Shown in pieces: positions 1,945 through 34,599 of a stretch of DNA of 64,000 nt (its first letter is position 1; every line of letters starts with the position of its first letter). Both the position numbers and the translations under genes were made by a program. Under the pieces are notes generated by a model that was not told where the DNA came from, did no database searches, and saw only the letters and a list, made by a program, of their open reading frames with translations. Source of the DNA: Hexactinellida sp. DTS-2022 (Eukaryota > Porifera > Hexactinellida); assembly GCA_028753945.1 (NCBI GenBank), contig JAPNXP010000001.1:8546501-8610500 (forward strand), read 5' to 3'.

Positions 1945-4230
1945 TAAGTCATCATCACTATGAAGGTGTTAAATTATTTCAGAAAGGTGTTTCAAAATGC
2001 ACCTTTAGCTCACTTCATTTAAAAGATATTCAAGTTCCAGTAGAATATAATAAGTGATGAGTCAGCATTTTTTATGTGCGTGTTGTGTGATCCCCAAACA
2101 TCAACCAACCCGTTCGAAATATAGAATTCACAAAATTGTAAAACACATTTTTTGATGATGTCATCATCACCTCAAGGTATCAAGACCCATTTGTAGAGGT
2201 GTTACGTGGCATAAGGATCAATTGATAAATTGGAAGTTTGTTTCTATCTTGTATCATCTCTGAGATTATCATAGTTAATTAATTAGTATAAATAATTATA
2301 AATATTATTTATAATATAACACCAATTTCAATGTCAACTTACAATTATTAAGTTAAATTATTTGTCATAAATAATTAATTAATTAATTTGGCTATCACAT
2401 TTCAATTCCGCACACTCGATAACCCCTAATAAACAAATTGGAAGCATCTATATAAGTCATACTCATATACTGACTGAATTAATTATAATTAATTACGTCT
2501 GTATATTTATAGGAGTTGACTGAATTAGACCGAAAATCTAGGCAGAAAATCTGATTTTCTAGGACTGGAAAAAGACCGAATGGAATAAGCCCGAAAAAAT
2601 ATAAGGGCTGGAATAAGACCGAAATAAAATCAGTACTGGAATAAGGCCGAATGGAATAATACCGAAAGGAAATCAGTACTGGAATAAGACCGAATGGAAT
2701 AAGACCGAAATAAAATCAGTACTGGAATAAGACCGAATAATATAAGGGCTACTCTATGCTTAGAAATATGTATTTGTAAGAATAAAAGTAAATCTCGGCT
2801 TTCTAAGCGTGAATTATGGTTCATTGAGAAAACACCCGCCTATCTAAAGGTGTGCAATGCAGGCTTGGACCGGGTCACCAGGTCAACCGGGTCACTTAAT
2901 TTTGATTTTACCCGATTCGTCACAGTAATGATAATTAAATTTTATTGGTTTGTAGAATTATAACTTAGAAAGATTCATTACAATATAGTAAGTCGTTTAA
3001 TATTTTTGAGACATAGTACTTCAATTGAAATTTATTTGGTATCGCTGGTCACTGTATAGTGTATACTTAATTACCGGGTCAACCGGGTCACCGGGTAAAA
3101 ATTTACCGGGTTGGCCTGGTCAACGGGTCTGAGCATACCGGGTCATGAAATCTTGACCCGGTTGAGGTGTAATGATTCATGGAATAACACTCGCCTTTCT
3201 AAGTGTGATGTATTGATCATGGAGAAAACACTGGCCACTCTATTTGTCATTTATGGAGAATGGTTAAAACACTAGAACTTTCTAAAGTTGAGTTATGGAC
3301 TTATGGTTCATTGAGAAAACACTCGACTATGTAAGCGTGTGTAATGATTCATTGAGAAAACACTCATCCTATCTAAGTGTCTTGTATTAATCATGTAGAA
3401 AACACTTGCCACTCTCATTGTCTTTTATGGAGAATGGTTAAACGCTCGCCTTTCTAAGTGTTTAATATTGATCAGGGTGAAAAGCTGCCCTTATATTTTT
3501 TCGGTCTTATTCCAGTACCGTACTGATTTTCTTTCGGTCTTATTCCATTCGGTCTTATTCCAGTAATGATTTTCTTTCTGTCTTATTCCATTCGATCTTA
3601 TTCCAGTACTGATTTTCTTTCGGTCTTATTCCAGTCCGTGTTTTTTTTCGGCCTTATTCCATTCGGTCTTATTCAGGTTTCCCCTTTATAGGGCAAAAGT
3701 ATTCCTGCAGTAAATATAATCACATAATCTTTCGTTGTTAAGAAATGTAAAATCTTAGTTTTCAATTAGAAATTAGAAGCCTACTCGACCTCACAAGTTG
3801 AATCAATATAATTATTACAAGTTGAAATAATAGAATTATAATTAACACTTTCCTTTGAACTGAAGTGTTAGTAAACAAAGGGAATTTTCAACTCAATTGT
3901 GGCACAAACGAAGCCCAATTTGAAAATTCGTGCACTGTGAAAGGGTGTAGAATTAAATTCTCTATCGAATGCATATAAATTTATTAGTCGGGTACTATTT
4001 ATTGTTCCTTCTCTAACATTAAATAGGTGTAGAAATGTGTCCAAAAAATGAGATCAAAAATCGTGACCCCAGGTGCACATCTGTAACCCATGAGACACCT
4101 GTCCTGAAAATTTCAGTTCTCAGTTAATAAAACTCTCTTGTGTGGATGAGCTACTGATAAATAACTAACCAAAGCACTAAGACCAATACTGGGCCACTAG
4201 ACTATAGTATAGTCGGCACAGTAATAATAC
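1945..4230 (-). repeat. X repeat family, left palindrome end (interrupted)
   Basis: Anonymous AT-rich dispersed repeat. Recognisable blocks, in plus orientation of the family: TATAGTGGCCCAG; a block with GGGGTCACGATTTTTGA; CACAGTGCACGAATTTTC; AGTTGACATTGAAATTGGTG; ACCTTCATAGTGATG. Copies lie at 30720-34597, 34600-35450, 38440-39700, 39836-40621, 58370-59330 and 63660-63830. This copy is split by the element at 2526-3690. No coding potential recognised. Confidence 0.7.
2526..3690. mobile_element. Element with inverted terminal arrays of AATAAGACCGA repeats (left arm)
   Basis: Both ends (2526-2755 and 3476-3690) are arrays of GGAATAAGACCGAA units in opposite orientation, separated by CAGTACTGAT spacers. 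The interior holds a second inverted cluster of CCGGGTCAACCGGGT motifs (2868-3172) and degenerate repeats containing TTGAGAAAACACTCG (2820-3480). Mirror copy at about 31250-32415, with different unit numbers, so the arrays changed after duplication. No ORF recognised. Confidence 0.7.
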
Positions 4231-4446
4231 AGTAGAAATCGGGGTTTTTTGCCTCTCCGGGTTATTTTGCCTCCTTGCTTCTCCTTGTTTCTTCATAACC
4301 TCATAGCCCACTCTATATATGGCCCAACAGTAAAAAACCATGGATATTTTAGAATTCATAACTCGTAATTGAATTCAATATTGTAGTAATTACAATAATA
4401 AATACACGTTAACAACAGTTACTAAGTTTGAATAATAATTCTATAA

Positions 4447-7400
4447 TCAAGAGGTTCTAGACTTCTTTGCGCTCTTAACTTTACTATCAGTTGTTCTGGG
4501 ACGAGTTAGTTTCTTGAGCTTTCGAGTAGTTTGCCTTTTTCTTGATAGTGATACGACGGTAGAATTGAAATTTTTAACTTTATTGGCAATTATGCAGTTA
4601 GACGTGATGGTTAAAATTCGTTTAAGATAATCCCATCCAAAGAGGTTGCAATTTGGGCATTTGTTTCTCCAATGTTCGCATTGAACATCTTCTAGCGATT
4701 TTATTGAGAGGTTCATAAGAATTTTTCTTGATGATCCAGCAGCGAATTGAAGAAGCAGATCATTATCCAACTCAATTTTTCCAAACTAATACTACAGCGT
4801 CTAGAACAACATCAGATGGCCACTTCAGATTTCCTCGATCAATTAAATCTAAAATTTTGTATTTTGAACCCATAGGTTCGTCGAAATGAAGATATTTATC
4901 CTCTGTCAAATAAATCATACAATTAGTGCAAGGACTAAGATGCTTCCATAATTGCTGAACAGTATAACCTCCAATAAAGGCTAAAGACTGTAGAGATTCA
5001 GTGTCCAGGAAAATATCAGACAATTTAAAGATTACAGACGAGTAAATATTGATATCATATGGAGTATTGATACATGTATCAGGTTGAGTGTCATCAGTTG
5101 TCGCAGAAAATGAGCTTATAAAATTGGCCAAAGTTAATTCATTTGAGTGTAGATTGGAAAATAAATTTAAGATAGTAGAGACCTTGAGCCGTCGCTCACT
5201 CTCGAGGACTTGACAATAAGAAATGTGGTAGTTGGCTCCTGACATCATTCAATATAAACTGAAATGATGTTCTAATGCGTCTGTTTGCAAAAAGTAACTC
5301 AAAAAGTAAGTGAATCCACATTCCTTTGTAAGATATCTAACTATTCTTGGTAACGCAAGACAGGAGTGCTTCATACTGGTAAACGTCTGAGGACTAAGTT
5401 TACCATCTTTTTCTGGGAGAGATTTCCAATGATCTAGCCAGTCAATTACTTTCGCTAAAAAGCCAAAGCGAACGTAATTGAAGTAAATTGTTCGGAAAAA
5501 TCATCATTGAGACGAATATTCTTGTTTGGCCTGTTAATATTAAATAGTTTCCATAGTTGATTAATAACATCAATAAAATCTGATGTATGGGTCTGGAAAA
5601 TCTGACTACGGGATAAGTTCTGAATTTTTATGGCCGAACTGGTGGATTCGCAAAATATTCTCAGAGCAAGGTTAACATTTTGTCGTTCGAAAGAAGTCGG
5701 CCAGCAAGACTTTGCAATTAATCTAGGAGCCAGTTTGGCACATTTGTACTGCTCTTCCCTATACAAAAGTAGAATGTCCTCAAAAGAAGCGGTGTTCAAT
5801 TGTTGAAAGTCATGAAAGTCTGGATACTTAAGTATTTTGTCATGGTTCTTGACGTTAAGCCAGTTATTACGAATAGATTTTAAGATATTAACGAAGTCAA
5901 AGATTAAAAACAAATTACGAGTGGAATCTAACGGATGTGGTACAACAGGTTGGAGTGTGTGATCAGGAGAAAATAGTTTTAAAAGGTTGACGTTCAGAGG
6001 ATAGGCATCTGTACCTATTACTTGAACTGAGAGGTTACATTGTTCGATATCATTTATCACGGATTGAACTATAGGGAATAATTGTTGTGCAGAAGAACTA
6101 CCTAGCGGTAAAAGACGAATTATTGTAGACCATTTTTTAAACAAGCTAGATACCATAATAGAGAAAACTGTCCTTGTCGGGTCATTCGGATCAAGAGAAC
6201 CTCCAATAATTTGTCCAGCCTTGTAAGTAAGATCAGACTTTACATGAATCTCATCCATTTGTAAAATTACATTCTTTTCTTGAGGTTTAAAGTTTGCAGT
6301 TGCTTGCTTAAGAAATGTAGTAAACTCATTATCCAACCCGAATGAAGAATACAGTTTTTGGATCGTATTGAAATGGGGTAGAGCGATACATTCAAGAGAC
6401 TGTAGGAAGTTATAACATGTTGAAGAAATCAGGTGGGCTTTAAGGGCAATGATTTGAGTAATTGTATTATATCTGCGCCTATTCTTCTGAATGCATAGAT
6501 TTCGGAGTTGGCAAACTATAAATTGGAGCGAAGGAAGAAAAGGAGCATCATTGGATATATCAACGATGTCATCCTTTGAGTGGTCTTCAATACTCAGGGA
6601 TGGAAACAGCCAAGCTGTTAACAGCCACTGGCTGTTAACAGCAAGTGAAAATCGAAGCTGTTAACAGCTAGATGCTGACCAATGCAATAATTGAAATATT
6701 ATTATACGTATAATCATTTAGTTTCGTTTTCACTGTTATGTAAATACGATATGCAATTCGAATCTAAACATTTTTGAATATAACCTTCTTTGCTTGTCCC
6801 TTTCCTTAATTTTTACTGATACAATTATTGAATTTGAATAGCTTGAATTGGCTGTTAACAGCTAGAATTGGCTGTTAACAGCTCACATTGGCTGTTAACA
6901 GCTCAAAGGCTACTTAAATGCGTTAAGGTTGAATGCCAATTGGGGACGAATTCTTAGCTGTTAACAGCAAACAGCCAAAATGGCTGTTAACAGCAGATTC
7001 ACCACCCCTGTGACAATACTAGATATTGCATTATGAAGAAGAGCAGTGGCTTCAGCTATCATATCTCTAGGTTGGGAAATCTTTCTGGAAGAACGAGATA
7101 TTGTATTTACTAATTCTGTAAGCAGAGTTTCGATGCCTGACATCAGAAATGCAGTCAATCCCTAAGGATATTTCTTTGGACTAGAAGAAACCTCGTGATT
7201 TCAACGTAGAGTCAATGATCAAAGCTGCTTCTACTCTAATAACTCCCTCTGATTTACATGGATAAATGAAGTTTACCATATCTTCTTACAACCACACAAG
7301 CCAAGGATCAGGATCGTTAGAATTTATTTTCTCCTTCAGGTCAGAAAAACTATCGACATCAAACATTTTCCCTTCTGTATCTTTTGTTTCGAGACTAAGA

Positions 7401-7780
7401 TTACGAGCGATAATAAATAATTCTTCTTCCTTAGTTTCATGTGAGAAACGAGATGCTCGCGATGTCTGCGTAGAAGATAAATAGCTAGGACAGCCAGGAA
7501 GAAGTGAAGGTATAGCACCTTTAACTAAAAGAGGTCTGTCTCGTTTGAGGTACTTGATTTCTACGCCGTCATTAATTCTAAACGTATAGTCAATGTCTTG
7601 TTTGAGAAAATGCTTTATACACGCATAGAATGTCTTAGGAGGATTAAGATGTTCTCTGTGTAACGCGTTTAGCCAAGCTTGACGTAATTCTGGGTCTTCG
7701 GGAGATTTGAATACGGGTGTATAGGCATCATTCGGATAGTAGTTGCTTTTACATCCAGGAGCCCAGCATTTGTTTGGCAT
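4447..7780 (-). pseudogene. P-element (THAP9-like) transposase, left-arm copy
   Basis: Mirror of the right-arm copy at 27160-30493, where the reading is described. On this strand the THAP finger starts at 7780 (7289-7780), the leucine-rich segment is near 6995-7158, and the catalytic core lies at 5455-6594, followed by the C-terminal parts (4772-5460, 4447-4770). It shares the same MITE insertion, frameshifts and stop as the right copy, so the damage predates the inverted duplication. One difference noted: Ala here for Val there, in the segment around position 4980. Confidence 0.88.
6595..7010. mobile_element. hAT-like MITE carrying eight GCTGTTAACAGC palindromes (left arm)
   Basis: Inserted in the P-element gene. 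Ends CAGGGATGG / CCACCCCTG, with flanking CAATACT at 6588-6594 and 7014-7020 (seven or eight bp, slightly offset on the right). Inside are eight copies of the perfect 12-bp palindrome GCTGTTAACAGC: three near the left end, three at about 6850-6902, two near the right end. Mirror at 27930-28345. Confidence 0.75.
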
Positions 7781-7879
7781 ACTCTCAGTCGATGTGATAT
7801 GAACCAAAAATATCTAATAAAGGTATATTGAAAATGAATAGGTTAGAACAGGTACAAAAGATTGGCAAAAGCATACATA

Positions 7880-8152
7880 CTTTACAGGGTTTCATTTAGG
7901 GGGGGGCGAGGGGGGGCATTTGCCCCCCCTCGGATCCTATGTGCCCCCCTCGGATCCTATGTGCCCCCCTCGGATCCTATGTGCCCCCCCTCGGATCCTA
8001 TGTGGCACCCTCGGATCCTATGTGCCCCCGCTTGGGATTTGAAAAAATATATTGAATCAATGATCAAAGCTGAAGCCGCCCCCCCCTCACATTCCCAAAA
8101 CTCTACTTTGCCCCCCCTTGCCTAAATGTCTGGATGAAACACTGCTGTATAT
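7880..8152. mobile_element. G/C-run MITE with CCTCGGATCCTATGTG tandem repeats (left arm)
   Basis: Ends CAGGGTTTCATTTAGG and CCTAAATG....GATGAAACACTG form an imperfect terminal inverted repeat of hAT type. The interior has about six tandem units of CCCCCCTCGGATCCTATGTG (about 20-22 bp each) bounded by G7-8/C7-8 runs. No matching TSD visible. Mirror at about 26788-27060. Confidence 0.65.
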
Positions 8153-8203
8153 GGAAGAAGAAAATTCGTTGTAAAGTAAAATATAATGAAAATATTGTGT
8201 TAA

Positions 8204-8590
8204 GGCCACTGTTTGTTGGAATCTTGTTTCAGCTCCACCGCCCGCGTCAGATTTCACTCCCGCACGAATATTGTCATTATTGTAATTATTCCCATTATTA
8301 CACCTACATTTCAAGTAAGGCCACTGTTCGTTGCCAATTTTATTGTAGCTTGTAGGACACACTCTAAAATAGCCATAATTATCTAGTAACAAAATCAGAA
8401 CCTATAACAAGCATTATTACCCAACGATTGCATATTTTATCAATAAGCACTCACAAATTAGAATATTTCCTCATATAATTATTAACTATGTCGTCATCAA
8501 ATAGTGAGTAATGATAATGAGATACCGCCCGCCCGCATCCTCAGATAGACTTCGTGTGGAGCTGAAACAATATTGTGATTAACAGTGGCC
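8204..8590. mobile_element. GGCCACTGTT-ended MITE (left arm)
   Basis: The terminal inverted repeat starts GGCCACTGTT and includes TTTCAGCTCCAC; the right end reads GTGGAGCTGAAACA...AACAGTGGCC. The interior has short ATTGTCATTATTG-type tandem motifs. Mirror at 26350-26736; a third, rearranged copy at 57925-58352. Confidence 0.7.
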
Positions 8591-8913
8591 TAAACGTAGT
8601 AACACAAAATTCGCAAATATTAATTATGGTTGTGTTTTATCCTATAATATTAATAATTGTATACCCATAATAAATTGCAAGTAATGTAGTCTTAGATGGC
8701 GCAAAATATGATATGACTTCTAGTCCATCCTTGGTTACAATTATTCCTTCAGTTGTTGGGCCATATATAGAGTATAGGCTATGCCCTGTATAATGTTAAA
8801 TACGGGGTTTTTTGCCTCTTTTTCCATGCATTTAGGGGGCAAAAAAACCCGATTTCGACTGCAATAATATTAAAGGCAGTCATTTCAATACTGGGCCACT
8901 ATACTATAATATA

Positions 8914-9313
8914 CAGGGCCGTATGAGCAGGTTCGGCAGGTGCGGCCATGGCCGCACCAATAATTTGGTGACCACACAAATATTCGGGGACACATTTAAG
9001 TCACCGACAACTATAGGAGCGGAATAATGGTATTGGCAAACACAACTGCTACAGGTGTGGCATAGGTGCTGCTGCCACCGCCAATCTGTTCGGTACCATT
9101 ATAATATATCGTATTTGGATAAACCATTATATTATTTATGGACTTCAATAAAGACTATAAAATCATTATTATGTCATTTTTGTATTTCCCTTAGTTGAGT
9201 AACTTAAAACATAGAGTAAAGCGCGTATAAAGTACAAAAGATTAATGTCTGTTTATAATAAATATGGTGACGTCACTTTGCCGCACCAAAAATGTTGGCG
9301 TGCTACGGGCCTG
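8914..9313. mobile_element. hAT-like MITE, CAGGGCCGTATGAGC ends (left arm)
   Basis: 400-bp element with ends CAGGGCCGTATGAGC and CGTGCTACGGGCCTG, GC-rich hairpin motifs near both ends (GGTGCGGCCATGGCCGCACC near the left) and an AT-rich middle. The flanks no longer match exactly. Mirror at 25627-26026. Confidence 0.6.
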
Positions 9314-9905
9314 CGATAGTATAGTCGGCACAGTAAAAATAATATTAAAGACAGTAAGATTAGAACTGGGCCACTATACTACACTATAGTCGGCACAGTA
9401 AAATTATAAGAGTGGGTAGATGGACATGAAAATTATAATAAACTCGGGATATAGTCAACGAAAATTGTTAGGAATTTTAAAATTATACATAGATGGTAGA
9501 TGTGTGATAAGTAGGCATTCAGAAATCAATATTATGGTTCAATATAAACTTACCCTTTTACTCTATCCATGGTTTTTCTGTGCCTAGGCCTTATATTACG
9601 TAGGTCACGATTTATGCTAAATTCATTTTCAGCATACTTGTAAAATTATTATAACATTTGGGAGTCTCTCGAATATAAATAGGTTTTCTATAATGTATCC
9701 CTTTATTAATTAAATACAATCCGGACAAAAAACTACCCATCCGCCCTGAGAATGCCTTTATGTCCAAAAGTATCATTTAAGGGAGGGATTTTGGAGAAAA
9801 TCAATATAATCATAGGATATAGAGACATGAGTTGGGGCTTCAGGGGCATCGACATGGATACACAATCGAGTTTTAAGAATATACGTAAATTTAGTAACAA
9901 ATAGA

Positions 9906-10784
9906 TTATCGATCTAAGCTAACAACCCAAGAAGCATACCAAAGATGTATGGCGTAGATATCGGGATCCTTCTTGAATTCAGCTAGTTTGGAATGGCACT
10001 GTTTCCGATGATTGAAACCGCATTGATAGAACAATTTCTTATTATAGACATACATGCAATCACTACTTATGTTATACTGCCTAACCATCTTAGCGAGAAA
10101 ATAAGGTCCTGTTTTTACAACAGGTGATTCCGGCCCAAGTGCAACTTTCAAAATTAACTTTACAGCATGTCTAAATAAAATGTGATCTGGTATAGCTCCA
10201 ATCAGTCCATTTGACACAATCAAATTGAACACATTGTCTTCTTCTGCTTCTGCGCTACCAGCGAATGCAGTGCAGTACTGTTGCTTTAGGAGAGGTTCAA
10301 AGCTACGCACACAAAGGAAATCCGTGTCCATATAGATCCCACCGTATCGAGCTATAATGTTCATACGCAGTATGTCACTGATGACAGAAGGAACTGAAGC
10401 AGCGATTAATAAATCAATCAACTTTGGGAATTCTCTACGAACTAAATCATCTGTCCAAATTGTATAACTCCAGTTTGGATGCAGATCCAAACATGTTTGT
10501 ATATTCTCCCTCACCCGCATCTCTACGTTGGATTTGCTAGTTTCATTAAGAGATGAAGAAATCCAAATGTAATGTAATCTCTTTGGAATCTTGTAAAACA
10601 ATGAATTGGGAACGTCTAATCGTTGCAAAATTACATTGTTTTCACTCTCTAAACGTTTGTATTCTAGACTATATTCCTGTTTCTTAACTTCAATTGAATA
10701 TTCGGTATAGAAGAATAAGAAGATAAGCAATAGAATAGGAAAAAGTATCAATATTGCTATGCAGGGATGACACAGTTTAACCAT
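9906..10784 (-). CDS. GT32-type glycosyltransferase (DXD), left-arm copy
   Basis: 292-residue protein identical to the right-arm copy (24156-25034), where the domains are described. Intact ORF with ATG start; a poly(A) signal (AATAAA on the minus strand) lies at 9702-9707. The 5' leader, about 180 bp and ending at a TTCTTTCAG-like splice acceptor (near 10965), is shared with the copy at 56128. Because both arm copies are intact and identical, either the duplication is recent or gene conversion keeps them alike. Substrate unknown. Confidence 0.85.
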   Translation of the reverse strand: MVKLCHPCIAILILFPILLLIFLFFYTEYSIEVKKQEYSLEYKRLESENNVILQRLDVPNSLFYKIPKRLHYIWISSSLNETSKSNVEMRVRENIQTCLDLHPNWSYTIWTDDLVRREFPKLIDLLIAASVPSVISDILRMNIIARYGGIYMDTDFLCVRSFEPLLKQQYCTAFAGSAEAEEDNVFNLIVSNGLIGAIPDHILFRHAVKLILKVALGPESPVVKTGPYFLAKMVRQYNISSDCMYVYNKKLFYQCGFNHRKQCHSKLAEFKKDPDIYAIHLWYASWVVSLDR

Positions 10785-11309
10785 TATTTTGGAAATTTTT
10801 AATATTTTTCATCGATTTATGTTATATATAATTTGTACTTCACACATTGATGCATTTGTGAATATGTGAAAAAGAACCAGAGAATTACCTCAATTATTCG
10901 TATATTTATTAATTCAAGCATATTTTTTATTATACAGATAGTATCCTATCTGAAAGAATTTCAGTGAGCATGAAATAACTGTCAAAATTAACATGAGTCT
11001 CGATTTAAATACAGTATAACATACGTAGAATGTATTCTCTTTAGATTCAGACAATATGCAAACAAGTCTATATGCGGGGGTACCACGAGGAATACGGCGG
11101 CTTTATCCCGTTATACTAACTTTAGACGAGCTATGGCTCCTAAGCAGTGACGGCGATTGGCTCCGGTCACCCATGGATCTGCATGTGCATTTTGGGTTAA
11201 TTAAACACCAAATATAGTATAATTAAATCATTTTTCATCTAGTTTCTCAAGCTCTAACAAGGTGCTCAGCACAGCAGGGTGGTCAAGCACTAAATAGGGT
11301 GGTCAGTTG

Positions 11310-11467
11310 CATAGGCGTCGTAAATGCAAAGGCCAATCCTTCGGGCCGCCCGGAAATTCCGGGTAAAATGTTCGGGTAAACTCCGGGTATAGTATTAGTA
11401 GCATAGGGGCAACCCTTTCGGGCCGCCCGGACATTTTCGGGCACCCGGGCGGGTTACGACGCCTATG
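11310..11467. mobile_element. hAT MITE, CATAGGCGTCGTAA ends (left arm)
   Basis: 158-bp element with perfect ends CATAGGCGTCGTAA/TTACGACGCCTATG and an exact 8-bp TSD GTCAGTTG (11302-11309, 11468-11475). The interior has repeated GGGCCGCCCGG and TTCCGGGTA motifs that can fold. Same family at 23473-23630 (mirror) and 51857-52012. Confidence 0.9.
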
Positions 11468-11669
11468 GTCAGTTGACAACCCTTGAGCACCCTTGGCGCA
11501 GCCACTGCTCCTAAGTTAGCCTGGTATCTGTCATAGGAAAGAATTTGGGCAATTTAATTGAAATTTATATTCTATGAAATTTAACACCTTAGTGCGTATT
11601 AGAGCTGTCAACGAATCCTAAATTTCTAATACACAAGATACTTGGGCATCTTGTGCAAGATTAATAAAT

Positions 11670-11788
11670 ACGAGCCCTTCGGTCTCGGTCGCTTTGCGAC
11701 GGATCGGTGCTACGTACCAAAGTTAACGGCCGCTGTACGGCCTTAATCCTCACCCATTCTACCATGTAAAATGGTAGAAAGGGACGTT
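11670..11788 (-). repeat. Serial-hairpin cassette, Helitron-like 3' end (left arm)
   Basis: Read on the minus strand: a TTCTACCATTTTACATGGTAGAA hairpin region, then GGCCG-CTGTA-CGGCC, then GTCGC-AAA-GCGAC, ending in CGAGACCGAAGGGCTCGT. That terminus is itself a hairpin (CGAG/CTCG) and is followed by T, which resembles a Helitron-family 3' end. Related cassettes at 23152-23270, 43172-43298, 43571-43640, 45033-45158 and 55458-55577. Confidence 0.6.
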
Positions 11789-11879
11789 ATATACAGTAAA
11801 CCTCCAATTAGGGAACACTTTGGGGACTGGTGAGAAGTGTTCCTGATATGGAGGATTGGAGGTGTTCCTTGATAAGAGG

Positions 11880-12033
11880 TGTAATATTGGGAGTGTCTCT
11901 ATTACTAGATTGATAATTCAGTTACACAAGACTAGAATGCAACAAAGCCTAATTGGTAACTATTTTACTCACTAGTATATAGTCATTCCATACTAAGGAA
12001 TGTTCTAGAATAACCTCCCACTAAGATACTACA
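11880..12033 (-). mobile_element. Gypsy-I 3' LTR (left arm)
   Basis: 154-bp LTR, TGTAGTATCTTAGTGGG...ATATTACA on the minus strand, preceded by a purine-rich tract just downstream of the pol stop. Mirror at 22907-23060. The same LTR family (about 159 bp without its MITE) is at 49629-50095. Confidence 0.85.
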
Positions 12034-12080
12034 CATCTCCCTCCTAATAAAGTAGTCTTGTGTTGCACTGTTCCTCATCC

Positions 12081-12233
12081 TAGTCTTCTGGTTGATACCT
12101 CTTAGTTGGGTAACGAACCCTTTGCGAACGGCGTAATGGTGGAGCTTCTATATGTATTGTTGGGTCAAACTCAGTGACGACTTCATCCGGTGGATACTGA
12201 AAGTATTCATCCTGGTAGTTACCATATTCATAT
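12081..12233 (-). pseudogene. Gypsy-I pol C-terminal fragment (left arm)
   Basis: C-terminal tail of the gypsy-I polyprotein, ending RRSQRVRYPTKRY then a stop, directly upstream of the gypsy-I 3' LTR. It is cut off from the rest of gypsy-I by the inserted gypsy-II. Mirror at 22708-22860. Confidence 0.75.
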
Positions 12234-23060: not shown

Positions 23061-23151
23061 CCTCTTATCAAGGAACACCTCCAATCCTCCATATCAGGAA
23101 CACTTCTCACCAGTCCCCAAAGTGTTCCCTAATTGGAGGTTTACTGTATAT

Positions 23152-23472: not shown

Positions 23473-23630
23473 CATAGGCGTCGTAACCCGCCCGGGTGCC
23501 CGAAAATGTCCGGGCGGCCCGAAAGGGTTGCCCCTATGCTACTAATACTATACCCGGAGTTTACCCGAACATTTTACCCGGAATTTCCGGGCGGCCCGAA
23601 GGATTGGCCTTTGCATTTACGACGCCTATG
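23473..23630. mobile_element. hAT MITE, CATAGGCGTCGTAA family (right arm)
   Basis: Mirror of 11310-11467, with CAACTGAC on both sides (the same TSD read on the other strand). Confidence 0.9.
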
Positions 23631-24155: not shown

Positions 24156-25034
24156 ATGGTTAAACTGTGTCATCCCTGCATAGCAATATTGATACTTTTT
24201 CCTATTCTATTGCTTATCTTCTTATTCTTCTATACCGAATATTCAATTGAAGTTAAGAAACAGGAATATAGTCTAGAATACAAACGTTTAGAGAGTGAAA
24301 ACAATGTAATTTTGCAACGATTAGACGTTCCCAATTCATTGTTTTACAAGATTCCAAAGAGATTACATTACATTTGGATTTCTTCATCTCTTAATGAAAC
24401 TAGCAAATCCAACGTAGAGATGCGGGTGAGGGAGAATATACAAACATGTTTGGATCTGCATCCAAACTGGAGTTATACAATTTGGACAGATGATTTAGTT
24501 CGTAGAGAATTCCCAAAGTTGATTGATTTATTAATCGCTGCTTCAGTTCCTTCTGTCATCAGTGACATACTGCGTATGAACATTATAGCTCGATACGGTG
24601 GGATCTATATGGACACGGATTTCCTTTGTGTGCGTAGCTTTGAACCTCTCCTAAAGCAACAGTACTGCACTGCATTCGCTGGTAGCGCAGAAGCAGAAGA
24701 AGACAATGTGTTCAATTTGATTGTGTCAAATGGACTGATTGGAGCTATACCAGATCACATTTTATTTAGACATGCTGTAAAGTTAATTTTGAAAGTTGCA
24801 CTTGGGCCGGAATCACCTGTTGTAAAAACAGGACCTTATTTTCTCGCTAAGATGGTTAGGCAGTATAACATAAGTAGTGATTGCATGTATGTCTATAATA
24901 AGAAATTGTTCTATCAATGCGGTTTCAATCATCGGAAACAGTGCCATTCCAAACTAGCTGAATTCAAGAAGGATCCCGATATCTACGCCATACATCTTTG
25001 GTATGCTTCTTGGGTTGTTAGCTTAGATCGATAA
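24156..25034 (+). CDS. GT32-type glycosyltransferase (DXD), right-arm copy
   Basis: 292 residues, single coding exon. An N-terminal hydrophobic anchor (about residues 8-26) suggests a type II Golgi/ER membrane protein. The catalytic region resembles the DXD sugar-transferase family (Pfam Gly_transf_sug, CAZy GT32): KIPKRLHYIWI (64-74), NWSYTIWTDD (104-113), SDILRMNIIARYGGIYMDTD (136-155, DXD at 153-155), C-terminal IHLWYASW (279-286). Sequons at N80 and N238. The 5' leader contains a likely splice acceptor (TTCTTTCAG, about 23985), so a non-coding upstream exon is likely. AATAAA at 25233-25238. Animal GT32 members include the alpha-1,4-Gal/GlcNAc transferases; donor and acceptor here are unknown. 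Confidence 0.87.
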   Translation: MVKLCHPCIAILILFPILLLIFLFFYTEYSIEVKKQEYSLEYKRLESENNVILQRLDVPNSLFYKIPKRLHYIWISSSLNETSKSNVEMRVRENIQTCLDLHPNWSYTIWTDDLVRREFPKLIDLLIAASVPSVISDILRMNIIARYGGIYMDTDFLCVRSFEPLLKQQYCTAFAGSAEAEEDNVFNLIVSNGLIGAIPDHILFRHAVKLILKVALGPESPVVKTGPYFLAKMVRQYNISSDCMYVYNKKLFYQCGFNHRKQCHSKLAEFKKDPDIYAIHLWYASWVVSLDR

Positions 25035-25626
25035 TCTATTTGTTACTAAATTTACGTATATTCTTAAAACTCGATTGTGTATCCATGTCGATGCCCCTGA
25101 AGCCCCAACTCATGTCTCTATATCCTATGATTATATTGATTTTCTCCAAAATCCCTCCCTTAAATGATACTTTTGGACATAAAGGCATTCTCAGGGCGGA
25201 TGGGTAGTTTTTTGTCCGGATTGTATTTAATTAATAAAGGGATACATTATAGAAAACCTATTTATATTCGAGAGACTCCCAAATGTTATAATAATTTTAC
25301 AAGTATGCTGAAAATGAATTTAGCATAAATCGTGACCTACGTAATATAAGGCCTAGGCACAGAAAAACCATGGATAGAGTAAAAGGGTAAGTTTATATTG
25401 AACCATAATATTGATTTCTGAATGCCTACTTATCACACATCTACCATCTATGTATAATTTTAAAATTCCTAACAATTTTCGTTGACTATATCCCGAGTTT
25501 ATTATAATTTTCATGTCCATCTACCCACTCTTATAATTTTACTGTGCCGACTATAGTGTAGTATAGTGGCCCAGTTCTAATCTTACTGTCTTTAATATTA
25601 TTTTTACTGTGCCGACTATACTATCG

Positions 25627-26026
25627 CAGGCCCGTAGCACGCCAACATTTTTGGTGCGGCAAAGTGACGTCACCATATTTATTATAAACAGACATTAATC
25701 TTTTGTACTTTATACGCGCTTTACTCTATGTTTTAAGTTACTCAACTAAGGGAAATACAAAAATGACATAATAATGATTTTATAGTCTTTATTGAAGTCC
25801 ATAAATAATATAATGGTTTATCCAAATACGATATATTATAATGGTACCGAACAGATTGGCGGTGGCAGCAGCACCTATGCCACACCTGTAGCAGTTGTGT
25901 TTGCCAATACCATTATTCCGCTCCTATAGTTGTCGGTGACTTAAATGTGTCCCCGAATATTTGTGTGGTCACCAAATTATTGGTGCGGCCATGGCCGCAC
26001 CTGCCGAACCTGCTCATACGGCCCTG
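25627..26026. mobile_element. hAT-like MITE (right arm)
   Basis: Mirror of 8914-9313; ends CAGGCCCGTAGCACG and GCTCATACGGCCCTG. Confidence 0.6.
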
Positions 26027-26349
26027 TATATTATAGTATAGTGGCCCAGTATTGAAATGACTGCCTTTAATATTATTGCAGTCGAAATCGGGTTTTTTTG
26101 CCCCCTAAATGCATGGAAAAAGAGGCAAAAAACCCCGTATTTAACATTATACAGGGCATAGCCTATACTCTATATATGGCCCAACAACTGAAGGAATAAT
26201 TGTAACCAAGGATGGACTAGAAGTCATATCATATTTTGCGCCATCTAAGACTACATTACTTGCAATTTATTATGGGTATACAATTATTAATATTATAGGA
26301 TAAAACACAACCATAATTAATATTTGCGAATTTTGTGTTACTACGTTTA

Positions 26350-26736
26350 GGCCACTGTTAATCACAATATTGTTTCAGCTCCACACGAAGTCTATCTGAG
26401 GATGCGGGCGGGCGGTATCTCATTATCATTACTCACTATTTGATGACGACATAGTTAATAATTATATGAGGAAATATTCTAATTTGTGAGTGCTTATTGA
26501 TAAAATATGCAATCGTTGGGTAATAATGCTTGTTATAGGTTCTGATTTTGTTACTAGATAATTATGGCTATTTTAGAGTGTGTCCTACAAGCTACAATAA
26601 AATTGGCAACGAACAGTGGCCTTACTTGAAATGTAGGTGTAATAATGGGAATAATTACAATAATGACAATATTCGTGCGGGAGTGAAATCTGACGCGGGC
26701 GGTGGAGCTGAAACAAGATTCCAACAAACAGTGGCC
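26350..26736. mobile_element. GGCCACTGTT-ended MITE (right arm)
   Basis: Mirror of 8204-8590. Confidence 0.7.
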
Positions 26737-26787
26737 TTAACACAATATTTTCATTATATTTTACTTTACAACGAATTTTCTTCTTCC

Positions 26788-27060
26788 ATATACAGCAGTG
26801 TTTCATCCAGACATTTAGGCAAGGGGGGGCAAAGTAGAGTTTTGGGAATGTGAGGGGGGGGCGGCTTCAGCTTTGATCATTGATTCAATATATTTTTTCA
26901 AATCCCAAGCGGGGGCACATAGGATCCGAGGGTGCCACATAGGATCCGAGGGGGGGCACATAGGATCCGAGGGGGGCACATAGGATCCGAGGGGGGCACA
27001 TAGGATCCGAGGGGGGGCAAATGCCCCCCCTCGCCCCCCCCTAAATGAAACCCTGTAAAG
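26788..27060. mobile_element. G/C-run MITE with CACATAGGATCCGAGG tandem repeats (right arm)
   Basis: Mirror of 7880-8152, with the same number of about 20-22 bp units. Confidence 0.65.
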
Positions 27061-27159
27061 TATGTATGCTTTTGCCAATCTTTTGTACCTGTTCTAACCT
27101 ATTCATTTTCAATATACCTTTATTAGATATTTTTGGTTCATATCACATCGACTGAGAGT

Positions 27160-30100
27160 ATGCCAAACAAATGCTGGGCTCCTGGATGTAAAAGCAACTA
27201 CTATCCGAATGATGCCTATACACCCGTATTCAAATCTCCCGAAGACCCAGAATTACGTCAAGCTTGGCTAAACGCGTTACACAGAGAACATCTTAATCCT
27301 CCTAAGACATTCTATGCGTGTATAAAGCATTTTCTCAAACAAGACATTGACTATACGTTTAGAATTAATGACGGCGTAGAAATCAAGTACCTCAAACGAG
27401 ACAGACCTCTTTTAGTTAAAGGTGCTATACCTTCACTTCTTCCTGGCTGTCCTAGCTATTTATCTTCTACGCAGACATCGCGAGCATCTCGTTTCTCACA
27501 TGAAACTAAGGAAGAAGAATTATTTATTATCGCTCGTAATCTTAGTCTCGAAACAAAAGATACAGAAGGGAAAATGTTTGATGTCGATAGTTTTTCTGAC
27601 CTGAAGGAGAAAATAAATTCTAACGATCCTGATCCTTGGCTTGTGTGGTTGTAAGAAGATATGGTAAACTTCATTTATCCATGTAAATCAGAGGGAGTTA
27701 TTAGAGTAGAAGCAGCTTTGATCATTGACTCTACGTTGAAATCACGAGGTTTCTTCTAGTCCAAAGAAATATCCTTAGGGATTGACTGCATTTCTGATGT
27801 CAGGCATCGAAACTCTGCTTACAGAATTAGTAAATACAATATCTCGTTCTTCCAGAAAGATTTCCCAACCTAGAGATATGATAGCTGAAGCCACTGCTCT
27901 TCTTCATAATGCAATATCTAGTATTGTCACAGGGGTGGTGAATCTGCTGTTAACAGCCATTTTGGCTGTTTGCTGTTAACAGCTAAGAATTCGTCCCCAA
28001 TTGGCATTCAACCTTAACGCATTTAAGTCGCCTTTGAGCTGTTAACAGCCAATGTGAGCTGTTAACAGCCAATTCTAGCTGTTAACAGCCAATTCAAGCT
28101 ATTCAAATTCAATAATTGTATCAGTAAAAATTAAGGAAAGGGACAAGCAAAGAAGGTTATATTCAAAAATGTTTAGATTCGAATTGCATATCGTATTTAC
28201 ATAACAGTGAAAACGAAACTAAATGATTATACGTATAATAATATTTCAATTATTGCATTGGTCAGCATCTAGCTGTTAACAGCTTCGATTTTCACTTGCT
28301 GTTAACAGCCAGTGGCTGTTAACAGCTTGGCTGTTTCCATCCCTGAGTATTGAAGACCACTCAAAGGATGACATCGTTGATATATCCAATGATGCTCCTT
28401 TTCTTCCTTCGCTCCAATTTATAGTTTGCCAACTCCGAAATCTATGCATTCAGAAGAATAGGCGCAGATATAATACAATTACTCAAATCATTGCCCTTAA
28501 AGCCCACCTGATTTCTTCAACATGTTATAACTTCCTACAGTCTCTTGAATGTATCGCTCTACCCCATTTCAATACGATCCAAAAACTGTATTCTTCATTC
28601 GGGTTGGATAATGAGTTTACTACATTTCTTAAGCAAGCAACTGCAAACTTTAAACCTCAAGAAAAGAATGTAATTTTACAAATGGATGAGATTCATGTAA
28701 AGTCTGATCTTACTTACAAGGCTGGACAAATTATTGGAGGTTCTCTTGATCCGAATGACCCGACAAGGACAGTTTTCTCTATTATGGTATCTAGCTTGTT
28801 TAAAAAATGGTCTACAATAATTCGTCTTTTACCGCTAGGTAGTTCTTCTGCACAACAATTATTCCCTATAGTTCAATCCGTGATAAATGATATCGAACAA
28901 TGTAACCTCTCAGTTCAAGTAATAGGTACAGATGCCTATCCTCTGAACGTCAACCTTTTAAAACTATTTTCTCCTGATCACACACTCCAACCTGTTGTAC
29001 CACATCCGTTAGATTCCACTCGTAATTTGTTTTTAATCTTTGACTTCGTTAATATCTTAAAATCTATTCGTAATAACTGGCTTAACGTCAAGAACCATGA
29101 CAAAATACTTAAGTATCCAGACTTTCATGACTTTCAACAATTGAACACCGCTTCTTTTGAGGACATTCTACTTTTGTATAGGGAAGAGCAGTACAAATGT
29201 GCCAAACTGGCTCCTAGATTAATTGCAAAGTCTTGCTGGCCGACTTCTTTCGAACGACAAAATGTTAACCTTGCTCTGAGAATATTTTGCGAATCCACCA
29301 GTTCGGCCATAAAAATTCAGAACTTATCCCGTAGTCAGATTTTCCAGACCCATACATCAGATTTTATTGATGTTATTAATCAACTATGGAAACTATTTAA
29401 TATTAACAGGCCAAACAAGAATATTCGTCTCAATGATGATTTTTCCGAACAATTTACTTCAATTACGTTCGCTTTGGCTTTTTAGCGAAAGTAATTGACT
29501 GGCTAGATCATTGGAAATCTCTCCCAGAAAAAGATGGTAAACTTAGTCCTCAGACGTTTACCAGTATGAAGCACTCCTGTCTTGCGTTACCAAGAATAGT
29601 TAGATATCTTACAAAGGAATGTGGATTCACTTACTTTTTGAGTTACTTTTTGCAAACAGACGCATTAGAACATCATTTCAGTTTATATTGAATGATGTCA
29701 GGAGCCAACTACCACATTTCTTATTGTCAAGTCCTCGAGAGTGAGCGACGGCTCAAGGTCTCTACTATCTTAAATTTATTTTCCAATCTACACTCAAATG
29801 AATTAACTTTGGCCAATTTTATAAGCTCATTTTCTGCGACAACTGATGACACTCAACCTGATACATGTATCAATACTCCATATGATATCAATATTTACTC
29901 GTCTGTAATCTTTAAATTGTCTGATATTTTCCTGGATACTGAATCTCTACAGTCTTTAGTCTTTATTGGAGGTTATACTGTTCAGCAATTATGGAAGCAT
30001 CTTAGTCCTTGCACTAATTGTATGATTTATTTGACAGAGGATAAATATCTTCATTTCGACGAACCTATGGGTTCAAAATACAAAATTTTAGATTTAATTG

Positions 30101-30493
30101 ATCGAGGAAATCTGAAGTGGCCATCTGATGTTGTTCTAGACGCTGTAGTATTAGTTTGGAAAAATTGAGTTGGATAATGATCTGCTTCTTCAATTCGCTG
30201 CTGGATCATCAAGAAAAATTCTTATGAACCTCTCAATAAAATCGCTAGAAGATGTTCAATGCGAACATTGGAGAAACAAATGCCCAAATTGCAACCTCTT
30301 TGGATGGGATTATCTTAAACGAATTTTAACCATCACGTCTAACTGCATAATTGCCAATAAAGTTAAAAATTTCAATTCTACCGTCGTATCACTATCAAGA
30401 AAAAGGCAAACTACTCGAAAGCTCAAGAAACTAACTCGTCCCAGAACAACTGACAGTAAAGTTAAGAGCGCAAAGAAGTCTAGAACCTCTTGA
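27160..30493 (+). pseudogene. P-element (THAP9-like) transposase, right-arm copy
   Basis: THAP zinc finger at the start (C5 and C10 in MPNKCWAPGC, later CIKH), ORF to 27654. Then a leucine-rich segment (27770-27930), a MITE (27930-28345), and a long catalytic ORF open from the MITE to 29485: CQLRNL, Asp in LQMDEIHV, KKWSTII, Asp in GTDAYPLNV. After a frameshift near 29475 comes LQTDALEHHFSLY (probable catalytic Glu), a TGA at 29689, then MSGANYHISYCQ and the basic C-terminus (30170-30493, another frameshift near 30160). All three acidic catalytic positions of P transposases appear kept. Start chosen at 27160 because the finger requires it. Inactive as it stands; lesions are shared with the left arm. 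Confidence 0.88.
27930..28345. mobile_element. hAT-like MITE with eight GCTGTTAACAGC palindromes (right arm)
   Basis: Mirror of 6595-7010; one base differs between arms near 28030 (AAGTCGCC here, AAGTAGCC in the mirror). Confidence 0.75.
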
Positions 30494-30719
30494 TTATAGA
30501 ATTATTATTCAAACTTAGTAACTGTTGTTAACGTGTATTTATTATTGTAATTACTACAATATTGAATTCAATTACGAGTTATGAATTCTAAAATATCCAT
30601 GGTTTTTAACTGTTGGGCCATATATAGAGTGGGCTATGAGGTTATGAAGAAACAAGGAGAAGCAAGGAGGCAAAATAACCCGGAGAGGCAAAAAAACCCG
30701 ATTTCTACTGTATTATTAC

Positions 30720-32825
30720 TGTGCCGACTATACTATAGTCTAGTGGCCCAGTATTGGTCTTAGTGCTTTGGTTAGTTATTTATCAGTAGCTCATCCACAG
30801 AAGAGAGTTTTATTAACTGAGAACTGAAATTTTCAGGACAGGTGTCATGGGTTACAGATGTGCACCTGGGGTCACGATTTTTGATCTCATTTTTTTGGAC
30901 ACATTTCTACACCTATTTAATGTTAGAGAAGGAACAATAAATAGTACCCAACTAATAAATTTATATGCATTCGATAGAGAATTTAATTCTACACCCTTTC
31001 ACAGTGCACGAATTTTCAAATTGGGCTTCGTTTGTGCCACAATTGAGTTGAAAATTCCCTTTGTTTACTAACACTTCAGTTCAAAGGAAAGTGTTAATTA
31101 TAATTCTATTATTTCAACTTGTAATAATTATATTGATTCAACTTGTGAGGTCGAGTAGGCTTCTAATTTTTAATTGAAAACTAAGATTTTACATTCCTTA
31201 ACAACGAAAGATTATGTGATTATATTTACTGCAGGAATACTTTTGCCCTATAAAGGGGAAACCTGAATAAGACCGAATGGAATAAGGCCGAAAAAAAACA
31301 CGGACTGGAATAAGACCGAAAGAAAATCAGTACTGGAATAAGATCGAATGGAATAAGACAGAAATAAAATCATTACTGGGATAAGACCGAATGGAATAAG
31401 ACCCAAAGAAAATCAGTACTGGAATAAGACCGAAAAAATATAAGGGCAGCTTTTCACCCTGATCAATATTAAACACTTAGAAAAGCGAGCGTTTTAACAT
31501 TCTCCATAAAAGACAATGAGAATGGCGAGTGTTTTCTACATGATTAATACAAGACACTTTGATAGGATGAGTATTTTCTCAATGAATCATTACACACGCT
31601 TACATAGTCGAGTGTTTTCTCAATGAACCATAAGTCCATAACTCAACTTTAGAAAGTTCTAGTGTTTTAACCATTCTCCATAAATAACAAATAGAGTGTC
31701 CAGTGTTTTCTCCATGATCAATACATCACATTTAGAAAGCGAGTGTTTTCTCCATGAATCATTACACCTGGACCGGGTCAAGATTTCATGACCCGGTATG
31801 CTCAGACCCGTTGACTTGGCCCACCCGGTAAATTTTTTCCCCCTGACCCGGTAGACCCGGTAACTAAGTATTCACTATACAGTGACCAGCGATACCAAAG
31901 AAATTTCAATTGAAGTACTATGTCTCAAAAATATTAAACGACTTACTATATTAAATGAATCTTTCTAAGTTATAATTCTACAAACCAATAAAATTTAATT
32001 ATCATTACTGTGACGAATCGGGTAAAATCAAAATTAAGTGACCCGGTTGAACCGGTGAACCGGTCCAAGCCTGCATTACACACCTTTAGATAGGCGCGTG
32101 TTTTCTCAATGCACCATAATTCACGCTTAGAAAGTCGAGATTTAACTTTTATTCTTACAAATACATATTTCTAAGCATAGAGTAGCCCTTATATTATTCG
32201 GTCTTATTCCAGTACTGATTTTATTTCGGTCTTATTCCAGTACTGATTTCCTTTCGGTCTTATTCCAGTACTGATTTTATTTCGGTCTTATTCCAGTACT
32301 GATTTCCTTTCGGTCTTATTCCATTACTGATTTTATTTCGGTCTTATTCCAGCCCTTATATTTTTTCGGGCTTATTCCATTCGGTCTTTTTCCAGTCCTA
32401 GAAAATCAGATTTTCTGCCTAGATTTTCGTTCTAATTCAGTCAACTCCTATAAATATACTGACCTAATTAATTATAATTAATTCAGTCAGTATATGACTT
32501 ATATAGATGCTTCCAATTTGTTTATTGGGGGTTATCGAGTGTGCGGAATTGAAATGTGATAGCCAAATTAATTAATTAATTATTTATGACAAAATAATTT
32601 AACTTAATAATTGTAAGTTGACATTGAAATTGGTGTTATATTATAAATAATATTTATAATTATTTATACTGATTAATTAATTATGATAATCTCAGAGATG
32701 ATACAAGATAGAAACAAACTTCCAATTTATCAATTGATCCTTATGCCACGTAACACCTCTACAAATGGGTCCTTTCTACAATTTTGTTAATTCTATATTT
32801 CGAATGAGTTGGTTGGTGTTGGGTG
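30720..32825 (+). repeat. X repeat family, right palindrome end
   Basis: Mirror of the left outer end, about 98% alike near 30.8 kb, with small indels (for example GTGTCATGGG here, GTGTCTCATGGG there), and clearly less alike beyond 32 kb. Contains the AATAAGACCGA element at 31250-32415. Continues after the hAT at 34428-34597. Confidence 0.7.
31250..32415. mobile_element. AATAAGACCGA terminal-array element (right arm)
   Basis: Counterpart of 2526-3690. The array at 32185-32400 has more GTCTTATTCCAGTACTGATT units than its mirror. Confidence 0.7.
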
Positions 32826-34419
32826 CAGTGGCGGCGCTAGCACATCAAAAGAGGGGGTGCAACTGGAGGTGCTATTGCATTTCAGGGGGTGCAATCATTT
32901 GTTCAGTTACAACCTGCCAGAATGTTTGAATGATTATTGTGTCATGTTATAACGGTGGTCTTTTATAGAAAGTAGCTATTACTTTAAGTTGCTACTCAAA
33001 TTTATTATTCGGAAACTAAACATATTAGCAATATGGCGACATACGTAGATCAGTGGCGGATCCAAGGGGAGGCGGGCATATGCCCTCCACTGCCCCCTTC
33101 CTCTATTGCCCAACGGTAGGATCTTAGTTCGGCGAGATACCAAAACAACAAATGCGGTAGGCTTATTTGCCTTTTCCTTTAAGAGTTACAACAGAAGCTC
33201 GTTAGTACAAACACGGTAAATGAGAATTTCGGGATAACAGGAACAAATGGCTTCACAAAATCAGGTTCCTAGATTTGCTATTCAATGGGTAATACTCCTG
33301 TTATGTAGATCTCTAAAATTGAGATATTAGAATTCCAGAAGCTACTTATCTTTAGCTAGTTATGTAGTTATTGTATCGTGTTTAGTTGGCAACATCCTCA
33401 TCACAAGATCCGTGCCCACCCAGACCTGAAAGTTCAGTTTCGCATATGGCACCAATTATATACCTTTAGTCAGGGCCGGATTTACCATTATAATATTGCT
33501 AAGTAGGCTATAGCCTTCGGTCCACTACAAGACCAATGTCAGGACACTACAGGACCAATGGGCCACTACAGGACCACTACCGACCAATGCCGATCATGTT
33601 CGGACCACTTGTGTGGTTCATCCTTCAGGCCACTCAAGGGTAAATCCTGCCCTGCCTTTAGTATAATTACAGATAGATCTAACTCCCTCACTATACATCA
33701 TTGTATTTACATATTTGAGATAAATAAGATTTTAGTATGTTGAATTTTAGTTAGGAATTTGAAGATACCCCTGAAATAGTCTCTGTTCACCCCTCAGATT
33801 TGTTTCTCGAACCGTCTCTGACGTAGATATCAAAGTACAAAGTGCTAAATTTGACTAGTCATTCATGCTAATTCTTATATATGTACGAATTGAAGTGGGG
33901 TAGTTCATAACTGCCAACCGTACAGGGATTTAATTATTTTGGCTGATCTGTAAAGCATACAGGGATTTATTCCATTTGTATTGGGATTTTGATTTACTAA
34001 TTATGAGTTAATATTATTGCCTAAAATATCTACAGTGATGATAGTATACTCTGCCATGCATTCTGCATTTACCACATAAAGACACAACTTGGTTTATATA
34101 TCTATTCAAGCGTTTACGGAATCCCTATACAGTATATATTTCATTGCTTTACCTTTCCAAAGTAATAATTTTGATATGTCTTTCGTGTGTCCCTGAATAA
34201 TAATTTCCGGGACGAGCGAGCTTAGTCGAGCGAGAAATCTTTGGGAGGCGTACACGGATTTTTGGACAATGTACAGGGGAAAATTTGAGCCCTATGAGGG
34301 ATATGACTCAAATAGGTTGGCAGGTTTGCTAGTTATGCTATTCAACTTGAATACAATAAATTCTAAACACACCTTGAATTCTCTGAGCACCCCCTAGCAC
34401 CCCCTTGGCGCCGCTCCTG
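32826..34419. mobile_element. Non-autonomous hAT element, right arm only
   Basis: 1594 bp; ends CAGTGGCGGCGCTAGC and TTGGCGCCGCTCCTG; exact 8-bp TSD GTTGGGTG (32818-32825, 34420-34427). No transposase recognised. It carries a nested MITE (33471-33654) and the start of another hAT-like end (CAGTGGCGGATCC at 33052). Absent from the mirror position near 2.1 kb in the left arm. Confidence 0.93.
33471..33654. mobile_element. hAT MITE nested in the 32.8-34.4 kb hAT
   Basis: 184 bp; ends CAGGGCCGGATTTACC / GGTAAATCCTGCCCTG; exact TSD CCTTTAGT (33463-33470, 33655-33662). Interior has ACTACAGGACCAATG tandem motifs. Confidence 0.92.
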
Positions 34420-34599
34420 GTTGGGTGATCACCCAACACTCACCTAAAAAATGCTGACTCATCACTTATTAAATTCTATTGAAACTTGAATACGTATTTT
34501 TGAAATGAAGTGAGCTAAAACGAAACTTCCAACTCACTAATGGTCGTTGCCTTTTGAAACACCTTTCTGAAATAATTTAACACCTTCATAGTGATGTAC

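What the first reader, a model, noticed from the sequence alone, without database searches (positions are those of the whole stretch)
1945..34597. Giant palindrome with near-identical 11-14 kb arms and a 4.95 kb spacer
About 10.8 kb of each arm mirrors the other with no net indel and only isolated substitutions, while the outer 2-3 kb are progressively less alike (a few small indels near 4.1 and 30.8 kb, many mismatches near 2.1 and 34.5 kb). This gradient is expected if an older palindrome is kept uniform by arm-to-arm gene conversion, as in sex-chromosome palindromes, or if a recent fold-back duplication landed on pre-existing inverted repeats. The arms carry an intact glycosyltransferase gene.
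Basis: partly seen in the sequence, partly recalled or inferred. Interest (0 to 1): 0.82.

Follow-up and report, generated by a model that had tools for sequence, protein, structure and literature searches.

The report
Giant palindrome with layered arm ages
An animal chromosome carries two mirror-image stretches of about 13 kb that are almost identical inside and more different at their outer ends, best read as an older mirror repeat whose inside was copied anew recently, a known kind of genome rearrangement rather than a new one.

Summary
The palindrome is in the sequence: 14994-2184 and 19946-32771 align inverted at 99.2% over 12.84 kb, with 8,078 identical bases from 14989/19951 outward. 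Divergence rises in steps: 1/9,986 substitutions, 9/1,427 (0.63%), 45/1,378 (3.3%). The 3.3% zone looks homologous by descent: both arms share a MITE at one satellite site, a junction found exactly at two places in the 112-Mb genome, and each arm has its own derived changes (21 right, 14 left). So an older inverted repeat exists and the inner ~10 kb was copied or homogenised later. The inner left edge is a short-microhomology joint (GGCA) inside a Ty3/gypsy-like element. That element is full-length across spacer and right arm; the left arm has only its 3' part, so copying probably ran right to left. Beyond ~2184/32771 likeness is patchy satellite similarity. The arms carry an identical open glycosyltransferase frame, one of three local copies. 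I favour a fold-back or template-switch copy landing on older inverted repeats; long-term gene conversion of an old palindrome is not excluded. Reads, other individuals and relatives were unavailable. New member of a known kind.

The parts
2184..14994 (-). left arm (inverted copy)
   Evidence: blastn 99.2% over 12,841 columns to 19946-32771; 55 substitutions and 11 indels from 14989 outward
19946..32771 (+). right arm, probably the template
   Evidence: holds the 3' part of a Ty3/gypsy-like element that continues without break into the spacer
14995..19945 (.). spacer: integrase fragment of another element, a short dispersed repeat (about 15452-15619), then 5' LTR, a hAT-like insertion and the 5' half of the Ty3/gypsy-like element
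14991..14994 (.). inner left joint: GGCA shared with 19946-19949 (inverted), one mismatch beside it at 14990/19950
   Evidence: arm homology runs to 14994; 5 of 5 other integrase-like relatives align from 14992 or 14993
15812..22708 (+). Ty3/gypsy-like element with 163/162-base LTRs (15812-15974, 22547-22708; 2 substitutions, 1 indel) and TATG on both sides; reading frames interrupted
   Evidence: family name from domain order, recalled
15976..17700 (.). hAT-like insertion in the spacer, 8-base target duplication GTTATATT; holds a further dispersed repeat (about 16653-17472)
   Evidence: the name hAT is recalled from end sequence and duplication length
5004..14989 (-). inner layer of left arm, 1 substitution in 9,986 columns
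3575..5003 (-). middle layer of left arm, 9 substitutions in 1,427 columns (0.63%)
2184..3574 (-). outer layer of left arm, 45 substitutions in 1,378 columns (3.3%)
2514..3684 (.). MITE-like insertion (with a second one nested in it) in the satellite, TTTATAGG on both sides, left arm
31255..32446 (.). right-arm counterpart of that insertion, same site, same TTTATAGG
4302..8783 (-). P-element-like transposon (THAP and TNP-like domains), left arm; dispersed relatives elsewhere; does not include the glycosyltransferase
9906..10808 (-). glycosyltransferase open frame (PF04488), left-arm copy
24132..25034 (+). glycosyltransferase open frame, right-arm copy, identical to the left
55955..56996 (+). 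third, older local copy of the glycosyltransferase region (92%; dN/dS about 0.33 against the arm copy)
1811..2508 (.). satellite unit in which the left outer end lies
32826..34419 (.). right side only: hAT-like insertion with 8-base target duplication GTTGGGTG, in satellite just beyond the arm end

Best explanation
The locus is a layered inverted segmental duplication. Step 1 (well supported): an inverted repeat of at least the outer arm zone, with satellite, its MITE insertion and probably the adjoining end of a P-like element, already existed and its two copies drifted apart. Step 2 (inferred): later, a break or stalled fork left of the Ty3/gypsy-like element was primed by a few bases of inverted microhomology in that element, copied the right-hand sequence outward (element 3' part, glycosyltransferase, P-like element) and rejoined the chromosome by homology in the older inverted repeat, which built or rebuilt the left arm and left the spacer single. 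The middle layer suggests at least one further round of copying or conversion. Result (shown): almost identical inner arms and two identical glycosyltransferase frames.
For: Three divergence levels, 1/9,986, 9/1,427 and 45/1,378; three segments beat one, two and four by BIC; neighbouring levels differ by Fisher test at 6e-8 and 3e-7 (borders were chosen on the same data, so these P values are too small). The MITE core without its end repeats is 95% identical between arms over 737 bases. The satellite-MITE junction matches exactly at 2 of 6 places found with up to 3 mismatches, the two arms; the other 4 share the MITE end and differ only in the flank. Of 53 outer and middle differences with outgroup bases, 43 could be polarised: outer 21 right-derived and 14 left-derived (10 ambiguous), middle 4 and 4. 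Joint: arm homology ends at 14994 while 5 of 5 other integrase-like relatives align from 14992 or 14993. Polarity: the right copy of the Ty3/gypsy-like element has both LTRs and matching 4-base flanks, the left copy is cut in reverse transcriptase. Its LTRs differ at 2/162, more than the inner arms do (P=0.0008), so the last copying postdates the insertion.
Against: LTR divergence (2/162, 95% interval 0.15-4.4%) is not significantly different from the outer layer (P=0.22), so the insertion may predate the whole palindrome, and one birth event plus conversion would also fit. A plain two-level story does not explain the 0.63% layer; the preference for three levels over two is modest (BIC difference 6.4). 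The outermost ~300 bases of the right arm are closer to a satellite copy at 40317-40621 (97.0%) than to the left arm (95.5%), so satellite copies exchange sequence and the outer layer is not a clean clock. The junction search would miss a copy with more than 3 mismatches. The spacer (4.95 kb) is far longer than the yeast fold-back spacers in the passages I saw (6 and 35 bases), so a template switch rather than a small hairpin is needed. Microhomology of 2-4 bases and 4-base flanks (which shift by one base with the choice of LTR end) are weak signals.
Confidence: 0.5

Rival explanations
1. An old palindrome of about today's length was born once (joint inside the Ty3/gypsy-like element) and its inner part has since been kept uniform by repeated arm-to-arm gene conversion, with the ends escaping.
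For: Three nested layers, most diverged at the ends, fit several conversion events of different reach. Outer layers evolved independently on both arms. Maintained inverted repeats are described in C. elegans and relatives (PMC1803023, part 1 of 4 of the text read); multi-kilobase conversion tracts are described for human Y palindrome P6 (PMC3723533, passages).
Against: Needs the insertion of the Ty3/gypsy-like element to be older than the 3.3% layer, while its LTRs show 2/162 where 5.3 would be expected at 3.3% (my arithmetic; difference not significant). No outgroup or population data to show conversion directly.
Confidence: 0.35
2. Assembly artefact: a false duplication, or inner arms made identical by collapse and polishing of reads that could not be placed.
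For: Inner identity is complete over 8,078 bases and no reads were available. A polishing effect on the inner layer cannot be excluded.
Against: Each arm has its own derived substitutions in the outer and middle layers (indels were not polarised), the spacer is single and sharply joined, and a haplotype misjoin would be expected to show even divergence rather than steps from 0.01% to 3.3% (expectation is inference).
Confidence: 0.12
3. The arms are giant terminal inverted repeats of one mobile element.
For: Arms contain a P-like transposase and transposon-rich sequence.
Against: The glycosyltransferase region 23050-25050 matches in full only in the two arms among 40 scored candidates; relatives of the P-like element start and end at window 4302 and 8783 and lack the rest; arm ends lie inside a dispersed satellite and I saw no target duplication in the printed ends (not searched systematically).
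Confidence: 0.03

Closest known systems
Long inverted repeats of C. elegans and relatives (PMC1803023, part 1 of 4 of the text read)
   Same: Inverted paralogous genes with near-identical arms; active maintenance proposed
   Different: The examples I read have intergenic arms of 160 and 124 bp plus genes, and the same structure in sister species; here arms are 12.8 kb with outward layers and no relative was available
Human Y palindromes such as P6 (PMC3723533, passages)
   Same: Large arms, single spacer, high arm identity
   Different: P6 arms exceed 100 kb; no evidence that this contig is sex-limited; ongoing conversion not shown here
Willow W-chromosome palindromes (PMC7023750, passages)
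   Same: Similar scale (W.P1 arms 19.6 and 20.1 kb, spacer 3.6 kb); identity high only in portions of the arms
Fold-back inverted duplications in yeast (PMC10622511, passages)
   Same: Inverted duplication centred on a short inverted repeat (3-15 bp), second rearrangement at repeats
   Different: Spacer here is 4.95 kb rather than a small loop; here the duplication is interstitial and closed on both sides, in yeast it ends in dicentrics and telomere capture

Membership tests
Inverted segmental duplication | Two inverted copies over 1 kb and over 90% identity (definition recalled) | tested here: met
   12.84 kb at 99.2%
Fold-back or template-switch inverted duplication | Short inverted microhomology at the inner joint | tested here: inconclusive
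   GGCA at 14991-14994 against 19946-19949, one mismatch next to it; fits, but 2-4 bases are little above chance
Fold-back or template-switch inverted duplication | Outer joint at repeats | tested here: met
   arm ends lie in a satellite with many copies genome-wide (39 candidates scored)
Gene-converted palindrome | Arms more alike than their age allows | tested here: inconclusive
   outer layer more diverged than inner, but the age of the inner left arm itself is unknown
Gene-converted palindrome | Orthologous palindrome in a relative with concerted evolution | not testable with these tools
   the tool states that this genome has no relatives held
Sex-chromosome palindrome | Location on a sex-limited chromosome | not testable with these tools
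   contigs are unnamed; no sex or depth data
DNA transposon with long terminal inverted repeats | Whole unit dispersed | tested here: not met
   region 23050-25050 in full only at the two arms among 40 scored candidates
DNA transposon with long terminal inverted repeats | Target duplication at the outer ends | tested here: inconclusive
   none seen by eye in the printed ends; no systematic search

The most novel reading that the evidence does not exclude
A long-lived palindrome in an animal that may be a sponge, on a chromosome not known to be a sex chromosome, whose inner gene-bearing part is repeatedly rewritten arm to arm, so that the steps 3.3%, 0.63% and 0.01% record successive conversion events of shrinking reach.
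Probability: 0.3. Interest if true: 0.5.

Novelty: new member of a known kind. Interest (0 to 1): 0.32.

Why it matters
The palindrome papers that my searches listed are mostly about sex chromosomes, where conversion between arms is thought to protect genes. This locus keeps layers of different divergence in one structure: a shared unique insertion that points to common descent at the ends, an LTR pair that bounds the date of the inner joint, and a gene in two identical copies. With a few individuals or one close relative it would separate recent copying from long-term conversion. It also shows that identical inner arms with diverged ends can be read as layered copying in a transposon-rich region without any appeal to sex linkage.

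Tried and rejected
Palindrome as one giant transposon: disfavoured, see rivals. Glycosyltransferase as cargo of the P-like element: rejected, because relatives of that element start at window 4302 and end at 8783 and the gene is outside. Outer arm likeness as a chance meeting of unrelated satellite copies: rejected up to ~2184/32771 because of the shared MITE junction, accepted as likely beyond it. The right-only hAT-like insertion at 32826-34419 as a clock: dropped, because it lies beyond the arm end. Palindrome extending into the flanks: L073 (left flank) gave no match to the window at E 1e-10; L074 (right flank) only short matches at the window's edge and 72-74% matches to the Ty3/gypsy-like element. 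Rfam: 0 matches at gathering score; tRNA: 0. Species: a search for a sponge genome paper with '112.' gave 0 papers; two more searches listed sponges with 18 pseudomolecules (3 listed of 4; 40 listed of 427) and I saw none of 112 Mb there, the nearest being 117.37 Mb with 14. Two nuclear-receptor zf-C4 hits suggest an animal; that so few receptors fit a sponge is recalled. How common such palindromes are in this genome: not surveyed. Substitution types (24 transitions of 55) gave nothing usable on GC bias. A weak PF12919 label on the glycosyltransferase (22.6 bits, below its cut-off of 23.6) was not pursued. Names such as hAT-like, MITE, P-like, Ty3/gypsy-like, satellite rest on end sequences, duplications, Pfam domains and recalled family traits; no classification tool was run.

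Full report
What is there. A self-comparison finds one dominant inverted pair, 19946-32771 against 14994-2184, 12,841 columns at 99.2% identity. Ten single-base shuffles of the window reach an inverted exact match of 15-22 bases; here 8,078 consecutive bases are identical, counted from 14989/19951 outward.

Layers, not a smooth gradient. Over 12,791 aligned columns there are 55 substitutions, and besides them 11 indels. Fitting constant-rate segments to the substitutions, three are preferred (BIC 573.3) over two (579.7), four (582.0) or one (718.6). The layers are 1/9,986 (0.01%), 9/1,427 (0.63%, 95% interval 0.29-1.19) and 45/1,378 (3.3%, 2.4-4.3). Neighbouring layers differ at P=6e-8 and 3e-7; since the borders were chosen on the same data, the true P values are larger. 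The step from inner to middle layer falls inside the P-like element and the step from middle to outer inside the tandem repeats at the MITE's end, so the steps do not follow element borders. Part of the outer differences lie in those tandem repeats, where alignment is uncertain; the MITE core without them is still only 95% identical between the arms over 737 bases.

The outer layer looks homologous by descent. The arm ends lie in a satellite whose two parts alternate in arrays on many contigs (39 candidates scored, so counts are lower bounds). In both arms this satellite is interrupted at the same base by a 1.2-kb MITE-like element flanked by TTTATAGG. A 25-base pattern over that junction, with up to 3 mismatches, matches 6 places: the two arms exactly, and four others with 3 mismatches, all in the flank; the reversed control pattern gave 0. 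A more diverged copy of the junction would be missed. The element carries a second one: of 10 other places that match host parts on both sides (40 candidates scored), 6 run from query position 110 to 418 or 419 with a 7-8 base overlap, and none of the 10 shows the nested insert at that place. Sites that differ between the arms were polarised by majority of other genome copies (at least 3 votes, at least 60%): outer layer 21 right-derived, 14 left-derived, 10 ambiguous; middle layer 4 and 4, one without outgroup; the single inner site had none. Both arms have thus changed separately at their ends. Against a clean clock: 32453-32757 is closer to the satellite copy at 40317-40621 (97.0%) than to the left arm (95.5%). 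Beyond about 2184/32771 only short pieces pair, at 87-98%, so I end the arms there; that is a judgement.

Inner joint and direction. The Ty3/gypsy-like element runs 15812-22708 with LTRs of 163 and 162 bases and TATG on each side, if the LTR end is set one base short of the last shared base. Reverse transcriptase and RNase H lie at 19672-20758 and integrase at 20759-21868 (its translation is the same as that of the left-arm frame scored). Its frames are interrupted, and a hAT-like element with the 8-base duplication GTTATATT sits beside its 5' LTR. The left arm has only the 3' part, cut in reverse transcriptase at 14994 and joined to an integrase fragment (PF17921) that has no DNA match to this element's integrase. 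Arm homology runs to 14994 (GGCA shared, one mismatch at 14990/19950), and 5 of 5 other places that match the integrase fragment align from 14992 or 14993 (67-70% identity). The overlap is 2-4 bases. Since the right side keeps the element whole, the right-hand side is most simply the template. The LTRs differ at 2/162, more than the inner arms (P=0.0008), and not significantly differently from the middle (P=0.31) or outer layer (P=0.22). The inner copying is therefore later than the insertion; whether the insertion is later than the outer repeat is open.

What the arms carry. A P-like transposon with THAP and TNP-like domains occupies 4302-8783; listed relatives range from 70% to 98-99% identity. 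The glycosyltransferase (PF04488, E=9.5e-15) has an open frame of 292 codons from a presumed first methionine, the same in both arms. A third copy stands at 55955-56996 (92%) with dS 0.17, dN 0.056, ratio 0.33 (one codon past the stop of the 56-kb copy was counted, and the ratio was not tested against 1), which suggests constraint. Eight PF04488 matches were found in the genome, eight of eight candidates scored.

Reading. An older inverted repeat plus a later right-to-left copy of about 10 kb, begun at a microhomology and closed by homology in the older repeat, explains the joint, the layers and the cut element. The middle layer asks for one more event. An old full-length palindrome under repeated conversion explains the layers as well and the LTR data slightly worse; I give these 0.5 and 0.35. 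Literature seen: fold-back model with 3-15 bp inverted repeats and second events at repeats, passages of PMC10622511; multi-kilobase conversion tracts, passages of PMC3723533; maintained inverted repeats in nematodes, part 1 of 4 of PMC1803023; partly homogenised willow palindromes, passages of PMC7023750. Other papers were seen only in listings.

Limits. How usual such palindromes are in this genome is unknown.

Noticed in passing
window 41287-47319: A second, smaller inverted structure: 41550-42388 against 46377-47214 at 98.6%, around a centre with a tandem repeat of period 138 at 43697-44889. Part of its arm (from about 42009 to 43307) is a dispersed repeat with many copies, mostly 95-98% (40 candidates scored).
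   Followed up: partly
window 1811-2508, 3686-4229, 30711-31248, 38575-40621, 58373-59013: Satellite of two alternating parts (about 700 and 545 bases), in arrays on many contigs; palindrome ends lie in it.
   Followed up: partly
window 1-1500: Part of another transposon family with copies on C5, C6, C8 and C11, mostly 90-97%. The frame at 788-1399 looks THAP-like by eye, but has no Pfam match at 0.001.
   Followed up: no
window 37071-38189: Transposase with an open frame of 372 codons (DDE_3, E=8.3e-18), flanked by 21-base tandem repeats in inverted orientation at 36842-36958 and 38300-38418.
   Followed up: no
window 54202-54904 and 61690-62486: Further short inverted-repeat elements (197- and 205-column arms at 97.0% and 94.6%).
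   Followed up: no
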